Of a stretch of DNA of 64,000 nt, positions 3,521-24,088 are shown one piece after another. Position numbers and translations under genes: made by a program. The DNA lies in the IMG/VR virus record IMGVR_UViG_3300042448_001702, positions 62,001 to 126,000 of that record. One strand, written 5' to 3'. Position 1 is the stretch's first letter. Each line of letters opens with the position of its first letter. Below the pieces are notes generated by a model. The model had not been told where the DNA came from and did no database searches. It saw nothing but the letters and a program-made list of their open reading frames with translations. Source of the stretch: a virus.

Positions 3521-4129
3521 TTAAATATTTTCTTCTCTATAAATTGTTTCAAATCTTTTAGGTAACTTACTATAATCCAACTTAAAGTTTGTTGGCATTG
3601 CTGCTACAACTTTCTTATTGTGGTATGGCATATTGTTTGGTTTACACCATCTACGAGTTTGCTTCATCCAATTATAGAACATCAAGTAACTATTAGCTTT
3701 CTTAATGTACTTATCGGTATCAATACTCAATCCCCATTCGTTAATCATTCTTACACTTCTCATTTCATTATCCCTTTCCAACTGAATAGCGATATTGAAA
3801 GCGTTTTCCAACGTTTGAGGTCTTTTGTACTTACCTTCCAACCACTCATCAATAACAGGCAATGCTCTACCTGCTTTTTTCCATAAATGCAAACCATCTT
3901 GCCATTGTGTAAGGTGACAATATTCGTGTACCAATATTTCCAATCCATCCGACTTACCCATTGAACATGCTAAGATAGCATCTACATCATCAAAGTATCC
4001 ACTACATCTAATGTTACCGGAAAGTTTTACATACTTCACATCTTTAATATGGGTCTTTATACCCAATCTCTTACACTCATCCTTAACAAACTGAATGAAT
4101 GCTTTATCGTTTTTACTTAATCTTTTCAT
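3521..4129 (-). CDS. HExxH zinc metallopeptidase-like protein
   Basis: A 202-aa protein with HEYCH at residues 68-72 (ILVHEYCHLTQW), the zincin motif with His-His-Glu for zinc binding and catalysis. A downstream Glu in the helix ERDNEMRSV could be a third ligand. The pattern recalls small phage and host SprT/ImmA-type proteins but no family can be fixed by eye. It is the first gene behind the promoter at 4143-4174, with a short leader containing AACCCC. No signal peptide. Confidence 0.65.
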   Translation of the reverse strand: MKRLSKNDKAFIQFVKDECKRLGIKTHIKDVKYVKLSGNIRCSGYFDDVDAILACSMGKSDGLEILVHEYCHLTQWQDGLHLWKKAGRALPVIDEWLEGKYKRPQTLENAFNIAIQLERDNEMRSVRMINEWGLSIDTDKYIKKANSYLMFYNWMKQTRRWCKPNNMPYHNKKVVAAMPTNFKLDYSKLPKRFETIYREENI

Positions 4130-13440: not shown

Positions 13441-14733
13441 TTAGAATTCTCCATTTCGTTTTACAAGTTCATCAACTCCTATACCATTAGCTATATCCAA
13501 CAATACACTTTTTTCTTTCATACAAACTTCCATAGCCATAGCCAATAATTTTTTCTCAATTTCTTTTGGTATAACAACAATACCTTCGTTATCAGCAAAT
13601 ACTAAATCACCGGGTAGTATCCTAACACCTTCTATTTGTATTGGAACATTTATTCCATCCAAAGTTGCACGCCTTCTAACATCAATACATTTATTACCTT
13701 TAGCAAATACAGGAAACCCTAATTTCTTTACATCAGCTGAATCTCTAGTAACCCCACCAACAATTGCACCAACCGCACCAGAACGTATTCCTAAGTTAGC
13801 ATTTAGTTCACCAAAGTATGCGTAATCTGATATTTCGTTTTCAACAATTATAACATCATTTGGTACTATTGTATTATAACTATGTAATGCATTGTATATT
13901 CCTTTGTAACTATCACCTTCTTTTAACTTTCGTATCTTCAAAGTTTTAGCTCTACCAAAAATCTTAGCATCAATTATGTTTGGTTGTAATCCGTTTATTA
14001 TAGTTGAATATCCCAAATCATCTAACAAATCCGATAGCATCGAACTATTCAATTGACTTTTTAGGTTATCCAATAAGATTCTATCTTTCTCTCTCAAACC
14101 AGCTGCTATAAGATTTGCCAATTCAAAATCTTCAGGCCAATTAACATCAATGGCTTCGATTATACTTGCTTTAACTAAAAATGGATTATCACCTATTCTT
14201 CTTTGAGTTTGTATAGCACATTCTTTTTTTACTATGTATAATCCCATAGTTTCAATTGTTGTACTTTCCAAATCAACACTGTTAGGTATATTGTTTATAT
14301 CATACACAGGCTTACCATCTGTCCACGTATATAATTTTTCATCTCTAACTAAAACAGCCGAATCATATTTGGAATGTACTATTTGATTTATTGCTAATTT
14401 AATTGTATTGGTTTCTATAAAAGGTGATGTACATAAAATCTGAATGTATATATCGGCATCCACTTGCCTAACTTCATTCATAAATAATTTATTACCATCG
14501 GTTTTATTATCAGCCAAAGAATGGTCTCTCTTTAATACAAAATGATTTAAATGAGATGCCATACCAATTACCTCATTGGATTCAGTATCTAAATAAACTT
14601 CGTCTATAATATCACATTGTAAAAGTTTTTCTAATGTATGTAAGAATAGTGGTTTACCATCCAACAATTTTATATTTTTGTTTTCTATTCTTGAACTTGT
14701 TCCCTTTACAGGTAAAAACGCAACTATTTTCAT
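13441..14733 (-). CDS. CMP-sugar synthetase-like / RraA-like fusion protein
   Basis: A 430-aa two-domain protein. Residues 1-225 resemble CMP-nonulosonate cytidylyltransferases (NeuA/KdsB type): MKIVAFLPVKGTSSRIENKN is the P-loop-like start, followed by LTKLLQ-type helices and ILCTSPFIET. Residues 230-430 resemble RraA/HMG-aldolase proteins: GAIVGGVTRDSADVKKLGFP and GDLVFADNEGIVVIP. Known NeuA-type enzymes activate sialic-acid-like sugars with CTP; RraA-like domains act as aldolases or bind RNase E. The ATG at 14733 forms a TAATATG junction with the GT29-like gene, which supports a joint role in activating and transferring a nonulosonate-type sugar. The fusion is unusual. Confidence 0.7.
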   Translation of the reverse strand: MKIVAFLPVKGTSSRIENKNIKLLDGKPLFLHTLEKLLQCDIIDEVYLDTESNEVIGMASHLNHFVLKRDHSLADNKTDGNKLFMNEVRQVDADIYIQILCTSPFIETNTIKLAINQIVHSKYDSAVLVRDEKLYTWTDGKPVYDINNIPNSVDLESTTIETMGLYIVKKECAIQTQRRIGDNPFLVKASIIEAIDVNWPEDFELANLIAAGLREKDRILLDNLKSQLNSSMLSDLLDDLGYSTIINGLQPNIIDAKIFGRAKTLKIRKLKEGDSYKGIYNALHSYNTIVPNDVIIVENEISDYAYFGELNANLGIRSGAVGAIVGGVTRDSADVKKLGFPVFAKGNKCIDVRRRATLDGINVPIQIEGVRILPGDLVFADNEGIVVIPKEIEKKLLAMAMEVCMKEKSVLLDIANGIGVDELVKRNGEF

Positions 14734-14734
14734 A

Positions 14735-15334
14735 TTAATCAATTATGTGAATGTTCTTAAAATTAGTTAGTATTCTTTTTTCAAACTCACCATCATGTTC
14801 AACAACATCAGTTCCCATAATTTTTTTCCAAAATTCTTCGTTTGTAAAATCTTTATCGTAGTAATGACCTGATTTTAAGAAAAAATTAAACCCAACTAAA
14901 TGTACTTCTTTATTAAAGAACAAAGATAAATTTAATGCTAAAGTTCCTCCCGATGAAAGTCTAAATGTTGGGCTAATCATCAAAGGAAGTGATACATCCA
15001 ATAGTTTAGTTCCAGATTGTATATGTATTATATCATCTTTGCTGTTTGGATACTTTGGTGATGTTGTAAATATAGGAACACTACCACTATACTTTATATA
15101 ATTTTTTTCTAAATACTTTGTATGTTTGTGAGAAAAGTCACTGCAATGCAAAGATAATGCAGATATTTTAGTACCTGCATTTTCTTCATGTCCATCCAAT
15201 TGGAAATCATTGAAACGAATTACATATTCATAACTATCTATTATACTTCCCATATTTTTAATATCACCGTTTCCAACAAGTAATACTTTTTGAGGAATAC
15301 TAATAAATAAGTCTTGAACAGATGAGTAACTCAT
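14735..15334 (-). CDS. GT29-like sialyltransferase
   Basis: A 199-aa protein with VLLVGNGDIKNMGSIID (residues 17-33) then EYVIRFNDF, matching the large sialyl motif that binds CMP-sugar. RLSSGGTLALNLSLFF followed by EVHLVGFNFF (about 126-152) matches the small sialyl motif, and HYYD follows. This is the layout of glycosyltransferase family 29. No signal or membrane segment, so it would act in the cytoplasm. It is coupled to the CMP-sugar synthetase-like fusion gene, so CMP-activated nonulosonate is the likely donor. The acceptor is unknown. Confidence 0.7.
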   Translation of the reverse strand: MSYSSVQDLFISIPQKVLLVGNGDIKNMGSIIDSYEYVIRFNDFQLDGHEENAGTKISALSLHCSDFSHKHTKYLEKNYIKYSGSVPIFTTSPKYPNSKDDIIHIQSGTKLLDVSLPLMISPTFRLSSGGTLALNLSLFFNKEVHLVGFNFFLKSGHYYDKDFTNEEFWKKIMGTDVVEHDGEFEKRILTNFKNIHIID

Positions 15335-21588: not shown

Positions 21589-21660
21589 GAGCGGTGAAAG
21601 GAATTGAACCTCTCCTTTTCACTGGAATGTGAAATGTGCTACCGTAACACTTACACCGCA
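21589..21660 (-). tRNA. tRNA-Gly-like (UCC), abnormal anticodon loop
   Basis: 72 nt. The anticodon arm reads TTTCACATTCCAGTGAAA: either a 6-bp stem with a 6-nt loop ATTCCA or a 5-bp stem with an 8-nt loop CATTCCAG, never the normal 7 nt. D and T arms (GGTTCAATTCC) look normal; positions 1 and 72 are T-T. It lies directly 3' of the large structured RNA. Confidence 0.65.
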
Positions 21661-21903
21661 TAAATGGAAAGTTTTTTTGTAAGGTGGGAACTTTCCGAGC
21701 GCTTGCCTAACCACAGGTATCTATCGTGTCAACCATTTTCGTTTAGCCCTATTTGATAAGGGATTAACAGTCAAACTTACAAAAACCAGCCTATACTGTC
21801 TACATTAGTTTTGTTCTTTTAGGTCTACATAACTCTTTATTCTCAATAGGTGAACATTATGTAAAAGAAAGACCACGATAATTCATCTTACAGGATGAAT
21901 TTG

Positions 21904-21946
21904 CTCTCTCTATTGGAATCGAACCAATATACAACCATTGAGAAAG
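21904..21946 (-). other. T-arm/acceptor-like minihelix inside the structured RNA
   Basis: TATTGG-TTCGATT-CCAATA (21911-21929) is a perfect T-arm with the canonical TTCGATT loop. It is flanked by CTTTCTC (21940-21946) and GAGAGAG (21904-21910), which pair over 7 bp with one G-U. This mimics the acceptor and T-arm half of a tRNA without D or anticodon arms. Confidence 0.55.
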
Positions 21947-22830
21947 TAAAAACGTTGAGAATACACGTTGGGATAACTAGCTTTAGAAAGATTATTTTGA
22001 TTCCTTTCGTTTCCACACCCTTTTGAGATGTACCAGTCAATGCAGGTTAGTAAAGTATAACCACTCTTAAAGTTGTAACTTACTCTCTTACTACTCCCCT
22101 TATTCAATCCTGCCGAACTGATTCAACCTTGCGGGTCTATAAGCTTTTCGTAAAAATCATAACCACCTTGCGGGCGTTTATGGCTGGGAACAACTCCCAA
22201 CTATGTATGCACCTTTCGGTCACAACTGATGGACACTTATGCTTTATGTTTAATTATAGTTTTTCAAACCTAAATTGAAAATATAAAGTTTTGGTTTGTA
22301 GATTGATTCAGGTAGCGGTCCATCACCAGCTCCCCCATCTTTTGAACGAGAGAATACTAAACTACCCAATGCGTTATCTCAACGCCATACTTCAAGTCAT
22401 CTTCATTAATAGGGATTGGTGTCCCACATTAAAGGATAGTAACGCCACCACGCGTACACAGTCTTATCTTACGTCCTTTCGGATAGCTTGATTATCAAGA
22501 CCACTTTGGTATTGAATCACGCAATAGTAAAAAGGGATTAGCTTTCTATGTCTTACAATAATTCTATGAGTTATTCTTATTGTTCTTCCGAACTCAACCG
22601 AAGGTTCTACATACCCCCAGTTACCCAAACTCTTCTGCTACAGTGTTACCCTCACATACAAAGCCCAAGTAATATCTCACTTGCCTACTCAAGCTCATAA
22701 CCCTAAACGGATTACAAACCGCAAATCATTTAACCAAATGATTCACTTTATCCTACTTTCGTAGTTTATTTAATGACCATAGGCGGCCATCGTACACTAT
22801 GTAACACAAGGTTACTATGTGTAGTATCTT

Positions 22831-22846
22831 CAATATGTTAAAGAAC
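22831..22846 (-). promoter_or_regulatory. boxA-like antitermination element
   Basis: GTTCTTTAACATATTG on the minus strand, about 13 nt after the predicted start of the structured RNA. The core CTTTAACA equals that of rrn boxA, and its position right behind a promoter is the position it has in rrn operons. Confidence 0.65.
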
Positions 22847-22865
22847 TTTTGTTTTAAGAACAGAG

Positions 22866-22897
22866 TAAAGATACGAAATCTTTTTCAATTTTCCAAA
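22866..22897 (-). promoter_or_regulatory. Promoter of the large structured RNA
   Basis: TTTG, 20 nt, TATCTTTA on the minus strand; predicted start near 22859. First upstream element of the structured RNA, with a boxA-like site following. Confidence 0.75.
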
Positions 22898-22965
22898 ACT
22901 TTTTTTAAAGATTCTCAATTTTGTTTTCTGGCGAACCAATCAACTACTTTATTTTTGAATCTTAG

Positions 22966-22997
22966 TAAAGATACGATAATTTTTTCAAACTACCAAA
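22966..22997 (-). promoter_or_regulatory. Tandem promoter (copy)
   Basis: TTTGGTAGTTTG, spacer, TATCTTTA on the minus strand; the block is nearly identical over about 40 bp to the promoters at 23119 and 23258. No gene starts between it and the promoter at 22866. Confidence 0.75.
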
Positions 22998-23118
22998 TCT
23001 TTTTTTAATTAGTTAGTTAAAGTATCCGGCTTTGTAGTTTCTTTTCACTCTAACGAAACTAATGTTTAACGAGTCACTCAATCGGTTTTATTAGTTGATG
23101 GCTTCAACCTTAACTTTG

Positions 23119-23401: not shown

Positions 23402-24088
23402 TTATTTTTTAGATTGTGCAACAAATGTTTGAGCTGCCTTAAATACAGGGTGTTTCTCATCGTATGCTAAAGCTGATTTAACTTTAATCATATTTCCTGT
23501 TGCTGGATTTTTAATAGTTTTGTCTAAAATATCTTTTGGTAATAAATGCATTAACTTTGTTTCATCATCAGAAACTTTAGGTTCTTCTGGCTTAAATACA
23601 AAAGTTTTTCCGCCTTTTAGTTTTGAATAAGCTTGTTGTATTTTATCAGGAGAAAACTTACCAATATTTTCTACCTTACCATCTTTGAATATAAGAGTTG
23701 CGTTTCCTTTAGTTTGTTCACCACCAAAGATAACCGCATCCTGTCCGTATTTTTTACCTAAGTTGTGAATATCTTTTGCTGAAATATTTGGAACGAAAAG
23801 TGATTCTTCGATAGCATCTTTTAGTAAGTTCTTCGGACAATCTTCGTATGATAGGTTACCATCCTGGCACTCAACCCAATGACCTTCTACTTTAAAGAAT
23901 CCATGCCCCATCTGCCTTAATTCAGCTTCTAATTCTTTATTAAGTTTTTTATTTTGGTTTGGAGTATTAGAATATCTATATGCGGTAAGCATACCCCAAT
24001 TTTTCACACTCTTTTTGCCCTGAATGTGTTGGAGAACTCTACCTAAAGAAGCTTCATCCAAACGTACTACTTTACATCCTTTTTCCAT
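23402..24088 (-). CDS. DUF3293-like protein with shared C-terminal tag
   Basis: A 228-aa protein. Residues 30-125 (GMLTAYRYSNTPNQNKKLN, FFKVEGHWVEC, EESLFVPNIS, LGKKYGQDAVIFGG) follow the pattern of DUF3293 proteins. The last 45 residues carry KTIKNPATGNMIKVKSALAY followed by a VFKAA helix. This tail also ends the HAD protein at 54162-54893 and, in weaker form, the kinase at 48460-49254. Biochemical role unknown; the tail may be a targeting signal. It overlaps the upstream gene by 22 nt. Confidence 0.6.
   Translation of the reverse strand: MEKGCKVVRLDEASLGRVLQHIQGKKSVKNWGMLTAYRYSNTPNQNKKLNKELEAELRQMGHGFFKVEGHWVECQDGNLSYEDCPKNLLKDAIEESLFVPNISAKDIHNLGKKYGQDAVIFGGEQTKGNATLIFKDGKVENIGKFSPDKIQQAYSKLKGGKTFVFKPEEPKVSDDETKLMHLLPKDILDKTIKNPATGNMIKVKSALAYDEKHPVFKAAQTFVAQSKK

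What the first reader, a model, noticed from the sequence alone, without database searches (positions are those of the whole stretch)
21666..22859. About 1.2 kb of highly structured noncoding RNA inside a phage tRNA array
The stretch has no credible protein frame yet contains at least a dozen perfect or near-perfect local helices, including 7-8 bp stems (21881-21900, 22724-22743), three GAAA-capped stems (22474, 22753, 22211) and a closing stem at 21666-21696. It has its own promoter (22866-22897) and a boxA-like site. GOLLD and ROOL, very large ornate RNAs known from phages, also sit beside tRNAs, but I could not recognise their consensus motifs, so this may be a divergent member or a new class.
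Basis: partly seen in the sequence, partly recalled or inferred. Interest (0 to 1): 0.88.

Follow-up and report, generated by a model that had tools for sequence, protein, structure and literature searches.

The report
GOLLD RNA plus undescribed pseudoknotted RNA
A lake-type bacterial virus carries a known giant cage-forming RNA (GOLLD) next to its tRNA genes, and the same stretch also holds a second, apparently undescribed folded RNA set between tRNA-like pieces that probably act as cutting signals.

Summary
All features lie on the minus strand.

(1) About 22860-21948 is a full-length GOLLD RNA. The Rfam GOLLD model matches 22369-21952 over its whole length, 295.9 bits against a threshold of 150. 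Homologues occur in more than 100 viral contigs, and some 36 helices covary in both the 5' cap and 3' ring domains. It is a normal GOLLD member. ROOL does not match.

(2) 21947-21903 is a tRNA-like minihelix: acceptor and T arm, no anticodon arm.

(3) 21881-21664 is a separate RNA of about 215 nt ('RNA2') with no Rfam match. It occurs in 23 contigs, nine of them outside the model's training set, with covarying helices and a covarying loop-linker pairing.

(4) 21661-21589 is an aberrant tRNA-Gly-like element.

A Bacteroidota-type promoter and a boxA site precede GOLLD. The boxA is present in 98 of 105 homologous leaders, against 2.6 expected. In the nearest clade, 37 of 40 GOLLDs are followed directly by a tRNA-like element.

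Best reading: one boxA-protected untranslated transcript, cut at tRNA-like punctuation into GOLLD, which forms the nanocage, and RNA2. Identity and structures are shown by computation; processing, assembly and function are inferred.

The parts
22866..22897 (-). Bacteroidota-type promoter, TTTG-N20-TATCTTTA, driving GOLLD; start expected near 22860
   Evidence: Sequence; promoter-like match in 93 of 105 GOLLD leaders against a mean of 17.3 in random windows of the same loci. Start site is inference.
22838..22846 (-). boxA-like site GTTCTTTAA (putative NusB/S10 antitermination site) at the 5' end of the GOLLD transcript
   Evidence: 98 of 105 GOLLD leaders carry GTTCTTTRA against a control mean of 2.6, maximum 7
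21948..22860 (-). Full-length GOLLD RNA, about 910 nt (5' cap domain about 22784-22371, 3' ring domain 22369-21952, AU-rich linker about 22307-22238)
   Evidence: Rfam RF02032 295.9 bits over 22369-21952; full-length nhmmer homologues; covarying helices in both domains; non-nested covarying pairs. 5' end inferred from the promoter.
21952..22369 (-). Conserved GOLLD 3' domain, Rfam model positions 1-416
21903..21947 (-). tRNA-like minihelix: 6-7 bp acceptor stem, GG-containing D-loop-like strand, canonical T arm (TTGG TTCGATT CCAA), no D stem, no anticodon arm; abuts the GOLLD 3' U-tract
   Evidence: Sequence; 13 of 40 nearest-clade GOLLDs have it at the same place; acceptor arms covary, 1 of 10000 permutations; 41 viral contigs carry the pattern
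21664..21881 (-). 'RNA2': about 215-nt structured RNA of no known family; P1, P4, a 3' hairpin (21696-21666) whose loop pairs with upstream linker (PK2), and a probable second pseudoknot P3
   Evidence: No Rfam match at E up to 1 or 5 (L106); covariance model R1 finds 23 contigs, 9 of them outside the training set; covariation
21666..21696 (-). 3' hairpin of RNA2 (GGAAAGTT/AACTTTCC); loop CTTACAAAAA complementary to TTTTTGTAAG in the RNA2 linker (10 bp)
21589..21661 (-). tRNA-Gly-like element with an 8-nt anticodon loop (CATTCCAG); acceptor GCGG/CCGC; type not assignable by ARAGORN
   Evidence: ARAGORN 'tRNA-???'; Rfam tRNA 34.1 bits, cut-off 29; a similar element follows GOLLD in 24 of 40 nearest relatives
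23016..23115 (-).
   Evidence: Stems covary, 0 of 10000 permutations; at least 119 viral contigs, 0 of 84,980 bacterial and archaeal genomes; no Rfam match at E up to 1

Best explanation
The interval is one untranslated phage transcription unit, read on the minus strand from a Bacteroidota-type promoter at 22897-22866. RNA polymerase passes a boxA at once; as in rRNA operons, this should load the NusB/S10 antitermination complex and stop Rho from ending a long RNA without ribosomes (inferred). The first product is a full-length GOLLD RNA (about 22860-21948), expected to assemble with copies of itself into a hollow cage like the solved 14-mer (inferred from family). A tRNA-like minihelix follows immediately (21947-21903), then RNA2 (21881-21664), then a tRNA-Gly-like element (21661-21589). 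RNase P would cut in front of each tRNA-like element and tRNA 3'-processing enzymes behind it, releasing GOLLD with a defined 3' end and RNA2 as a separate molecule: tRNA punctuation (inferred from anatomy). RNA2 folds with P1, P4 and a 3' hairpin whose loop pairs with the linker, within one molecule or between copies; its function is unknown, and my best guess is a trans-acting partner of the same phage RNA programme. Shown: identity of GOLLD, its covarying structure, boxA enrichment, conserved adjacency of the tRNA-like elements, RNA2 as a conserved folded RNA. Inferred: antitermination, cleavage, cage assembly, function.
For: GOLLD: RF02032 full-length match, 295.9 bits; full-length homologues incl. 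two huge-phage genomes, and a partial match in an Acinetobacter phage isolate; about 36 covarying helices in both domains; strongly covarying non-nested pairs, e.g. 22324-22319 with 22233-22228, 22212-22208 with 22044-22040, 22011 with 21961, 22610-22608 with 22300-22298. These have the character of the loop-linker contacts described for the solved 14-mer (PMC12286853). boxA: 98 of 105 leaders against 2.6 expected. Punctuation: 37 of 40 nearest-clade GOLLDs have a tRNA-like element starting within about 20 nt of the 3' end, 24 tRNA-Gly-like and 13 minihelix; minihelix acceptors covary; in 11 of the RNA2 contigs read (L068, L091, L092, L115, L138, L152, L168, L304-L306, L311) RNA2 starts 0-2 nt after the tRNA-like element. 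RNA2: 23 contigs; P1 and P4 reached by 0 of 50000 permutations and the loop-linker pairing by 16 of 50000; 60 double-sided compensations against 24 in shuffles, covariation score 0.448 against 0.208; out-of-sample L252 carries a fresh compensatory P1 (GCCG/CGGC) and loop pairing (GGAAA/TTTCC).
Against: No transcript data exist for this uncultured phage; no cut site, end or expression is measured. GOLLD ends in a U-tract behind a short stem, which could end some transcripts without processing, and more distant GOLLDs end in an ordinary terminator with no tRNA-like element. Minihelices also occur away from GOLLD. The permutation tests ignore relatedness of the sequences. P3 of RNA2 is weaker (702 of 20000) and not seen in a few members. 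In this window a 22-nt hairpin separates the minihelix from RNA2, so they do not abut here.
Confidence: 0.75

Rival explanations
1. Plain GOLLD member beside tRNAs; everything 3' of 21948 is decayed tRNA and spacer without function.
For: GOLLD is securely identified. Phage tRNA arrays hold degenerate tRNAs; ARAGORN cannot type the element at 21589-21661.
Against: RNA2 keeps pairing across 23 contigs with compensatory changes, also in sequences outside the training set. The minihelix acceptors covary and the placement after GOLLD recurs in 37 of 40. Decay does not give that.
Confidence: 0.1
2. One large RNA: the 3' segment is an extra domain of this GOLLD and stays attached to it.
For: Same strand, no promoter found between, RNA2 usually downstream of GOLLD.
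Against: A tRNA-like element separates the two. Close GOLLDs such as L122, L016 and L094 lack RNA2, and L252 has RNA2 but no GOLLD in its 4.1-kb locus. The consensus helices of the GOLLD alignment end at about 21951.
Confidence: 0.1
3. The tRNA-like elements are there to be charged or to be cargo (covalently linked tRNAs in or near the cage), not to be cut off.
For: Kretsch et al. note tRNAs in the GOLLD linker and draw them linked to the cage (PMC12286853). The tRNA-Gly-like elements keep the acceptor pairs and _CC anticodon expected for glycine identity (inference from known GlyRS rules; sequences).
Against: The minihelix form has no anticodon arm at all, and several Gly-like forms have 8-nt anticodon loops or T loops without TTCRA, so decoding is unlikely. 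No tRNA lies in the linker here.
Confidence: 0.15

Closest known systems
GOLLD RNA (Rfam RF02032)
   Same: Full-length match to the conserved 3' domain, structured 5' domain, about 910 nt, AU-rich linker, phage tRNA array, downstream of a tRNA-Met as in env-38
   Different: boxA at the 5' end, and a minihelix and RNA2 directly downstream; I found no earlier description of these in the papers held, but the founding GOLLD papers were not readable here
ROOL RNA
   Same: Large ornate phage RNA near tRNAs that forms a cage
   Different: No match to its Rfam model in the window
MALAT1/mascRNA-type 3' processing (from own knowledge)
   Same: A tRNA-like element directly behind a long non-coding RNA, where RNase P could set the RNA's 3' end
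   Different: Phage, minihelix without anticodon arm; cleavage not shown here
rRNA operons with boxA (NusB/S10 antitermination)
   Same: boxA near the start of a long untranslated transcript with tRNAs, GTTCTTTAA core
   Different: Cage RNA instead of rRNA; no protein binding tested
tmRNA (RF00023)
   Same: Pseudoknotted RNA with tRNA-like parts in the same arrays of relatives
   Different: RNA2 has no tRNA-like domain of its own and no match; relatives carry a separate tmRNA; the phage record has none over the cut-off

Membership tests
GOLLD (RF02032) | Covariance-model score above the curated threshold over the conserved 3' domain | tested here: met
   295.9 bits against 150, model 1-416 of 416
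GOLLD (RF02032) | Structured 5' domain and length above 800 nt | tested here: met
   About 910 nt; covarying helices 22784-22371. Identity of the 5' domain with that of env-38 itself not compared.
GOLLD (RF02032) | Variable linker between structured domains | tested here: met
   AU-rich 22307-22238, no consensus helix there
GOLLD (RF02032) | Phage or prophage origin beside tRNA island | tested here: met
   IMG/VR record of 160 kb, 27 tRNA genes in the window
GOLLD (RF02032) | Loop-linker contacts of the assembled cage | tested here: inconclusive
   Non-nested covarying pairs present; one-to-one assignment to bridges of the solved structure not possible without its coordinates
GOLLD (RF02032) | Homo-14-mer nanocage | not testable with these tools
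   Needs RNA and cryo-EM
ROOL | Match to the ROOL covariance model | tested here: not met
   No match at gathering score, nor at E up to 1
Any Rfam family, for RNA2 | Match to one of 4227 models | tested here: not met
   None in window at E up to 1 or in L106 at E up to 5
tRNA, for 21947-21903 | Acceptor stem and T arm | tested here: met
   Sequence; acceptor covariation
tRNA, for 21947-21903 | D stem and anticodon arm | tested here: not met
   Only about 10 nt between acceptor strand and T arm; not found by ARAGORN or the Rfam tRNA model

The most novel reading that the evidence does not exclude
RNA2 is a new family of structured phage RNA, made together with GOLLD from a boxA-protected transcript and released by anticodon-less tRNA-like minihelices that serve as processing punctuation. 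RNA2 may work with the GOLLD cage, for example as cargo or assembly partner, and its loop-linker pairing may itself join copies of RNA2.
Probability: 0.4. Interest if true: 0.8.

Novelty: new variant of a known kind. Interest (0 to 1): 0.58.

Why it matters
GOLLD is one of very few natural RNAs known to build a protein-free cage, and nobody knows what it does. Here it comes with things that can be tested: a boxA that suggests how a phage makes such a long untranslated RNA, tRNA-like elements that could set its 3' end, and a second conserved folded RNA in the same unit that could be its partner or cargo. The contigs also give a deep alignment for both RNAs.

Tried and rejected
ROOL: no model match. 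tmRNA for RNA2: rejected, no match, and relatives have tmRNA elsewhere in the array. One 1.2-kb RNA: rejected (see rivals). RNA2 as a duplicate of the GOLLD 3' end: weak nhmmer overlaps in L067 and L069 suggested it, but no such overlap appears with the RNA2 profile. RNA2 in sequenced phages by blastn: no match. A first search for tRNAs after GOLLD gave mostly 'none', because most GOLLDs outside this clade end in terminators and the clade's elements are aberrant; repeated with element-specific patterns. Related phages by protein 23402-24088 found only one contig, 100% identical there. The founding GOLLD papers (PMC4140389, PMC7549688) are not held. Literature searches for boxA with such RNAs gave nothing relevant.

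Full report
What is there. The window is part of a 160-kb IMG/VR virus record. It has 27 tRNA genes on the minus strand between 15.8 and 23.2 kb. Within 21666-22859 no ORF is longer than about 66 aa. Rfam finds GOLLD (RF02032) at 22369-21952 minus, full model length, 295.9 bits, E 1e-83, and nothing else above threshold but tRNAs. No ROOL.

GOLLD is complete. A single-sequence nhmmer search with 22860-21952 against fetched loci gave full-length matches over about 909 positions in many IMG/VR contigs. In one search, 235 contigs had a match at E below 1e-3, many of them partial or weak. Sequenced phages with a match are two uncultured huge phages (LR756502, LR745206) and, over 10% of the query, Acinetobacter phage vB_AciJM_313; all pass the GOLLD threshold. 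On 107 non-redundant sequences RNAalifold gives about 36 helices between 22784 and 21951, nearly all with double-sided changes, in both the 5' part and the 3' part. Outside the nested structure, the strongest compatible covariation joins 22324-22319 with 22233-22228, 22212-22208 with 22044-22040, 22011 with 21961, and 22610-22608 with 22300-22298. The solved env-38 GOLLD (PMC12286853) has a kissing contact between L20 and J13/15, a pseudoknot of L22 with J17/22, and pairing of L27 with J24/26. I read the first three sets as these or similar contacts, but I had no coordinates to prove the assignment. By family, a cage is expected; it is not shown here.

Start of the transcript. A Bacteroidota-type promoter lies at 22897-22866 and a boxA core GTTCTTTAA at 22846-22838. 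In 105 homologous leaders 98 have GTTCTTTRA, against a mean of 2.6 (maximum 7) in 200 draws of random windows from the same loci; 93 have a promoter-like site against 17.3. The boxA link is new to me for GOLLD. Antitermination is inferred from rRNA operons, not tested.

The 3' quarter is not GOLLD. Directly behind the GOLLD U-tract lies a minihelix at 21947-21903: acceptor CTTTCTC/GAGAGAG, a short strand with GG, T arm TTGG-TTCGATT-CCAA, no anticodon arm. In the 40 distinct nearest GOLLDs with enough downstream sequence, 13 have this minihelix and 24 a tRNA-Gly-like element at the same place; 3 have neither. Minihelix acceptors change together: TTATCAT/ATGATAG, TTATCTA/TAGATAA, TTTTTAC/GTAAAAA, CTTTCTC/GAGAGAG (1 of 10000 permutations). 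Several Gly-like elements have 8-nt anticodon loops or a T loop without TTCRA, so they probably do not decode. More distant GOLLDs that were read mostly end in terminators instead. A scan for the minihelix pattern gave 41 viral contigs, of which about 25 have it beside GOLLD, so it is not exclusive to GOLLD.

RNA2. At 21881-21664 lies a separate RNA. It has no Rfam match and no blastn match in sequenced phages. MAFFT alone lines up 14 homologues so that P1 and P4 pair in 94% of cells. A covariance model from these 14 finds 9 further contigs, at E 1e-18 to 1e-37. On 23 sequences, 60 double-sided compensatory cells stand against 24 in shuffles, covariation score 0.448 against 0.208, and sliding the partners destroys it (this alignment is fitted to the model, but that is not). 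The 3' hairpin loop pairs with the linker upstream: GTAGGG/CCCTAC, GTGGGG/CCCCAC, GGGGAA/TTCCCC, GGGAGG/CCTCCC, GGAAGG/CCTTCC, GGAAA/TTTCC and, in the window, TTTTTGTAAG/CTTACAAAAA (16 of 50000 permutations). A second pseudoknot, P3, is likely but weaker (702 of 20000). L252 has RNA2 without GOLLD in its locus, and L122, L016 and L094 have GOLLD without RNA2. So RNA2 is its own RNA. Whether the loop pairing is within one molecule or between copies cannot be told from sequence.

How it probably works. In 11 of the RNA2 contigs RNA2 begins 0-2 nt behind the tRNA-like element, and in the window its last hairpin ends about 5 nt before the next one. Together with boxA this fits one long untranslated transcript, cut at tRNA-like punctuation into GOLLD and RNA2. 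RNase P accepts acceptor-T-arm minihelices in general (own knowledge). Cleavage, transcript ends, cage assembly and any link between RNA2 and the cage are inference.

Limits. Permutation controls ignore phylogeny. The original GOLLD papers could not be read, so 'undescribed' means: not in Rfam 15 and not found in the papers held.

Noticed in passing
window 23016-23115 (-): RNA4: conserved small RNA with a covarying closing stem and inner stem and invariant TTGAAGCCA / TAATAAAACCGA / AAAGCCGG. In several contigs (L245, L246, L254, L257, L262) it sits just before a uvsX/recA-like gene, with a Shine-Dalgarno after it.
   Followed up: partly
window 22917-22970 (-): RNA5: a further promoter-driven unit, GATTC...GAATC closing stem, near-identical in L122, L145, L152.
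   Followed up: no
L019, L138, L168, L226 and others, upstream of GOLLD: RNA6: motif TAGGTGATGAAAGATACTCG with covarying flanks, 29 distinct flank pairs; not seen in this window.
   Followed up: partly
L105, L182, L215, L225-L239 (downstream of GOLLD): RNA3: about 68-nt element AGTAATTT..GAGCATGACTTGACGTGGCGTATTTTGAA..AAATTACT, in 20 contigs, each with a full or partial GOLLD match beside it.
   Followed up: partly
window 21443-21288 (-): Small ORF of 51 aa (MKTLTLHT...QLEEASGW) behind the array; variants ending LEDTDVG recur at the same place in relatives. No Pfam or PHROG match.
   Followed up: partly
L019, L068, L105, L106, L182, L252: Relatives carry a tmRNA in the same array; the window's phage record has none over the cut-off.
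   Followed up: partly
L002 about 3790-3900; L003 downstream of GOLLD; L105, L233, L334: tRNA genes with D-loop insertions (about 20-45 nt, often a hairpin) next to GOLLD.
   Followed up: no
window 13441-14742 (-): Fusion of a cytidylyltransferase domain (PF02348) with an RraA-like domain (PF03737).
   Followed up: no
window 23402-24088 (-): Protein upstream of the RNA units matches the S-adenosylmethionine lyase family (PF23780), a known anti-restriction type.
   Followed up: no
L346, L347, L352, L356, L357, L364: Anticodon-less tRNA-like minihelices with well-paired acceptor stems in other phages, no GOLLD found in those loci; L364 has two.
   Followed up: no
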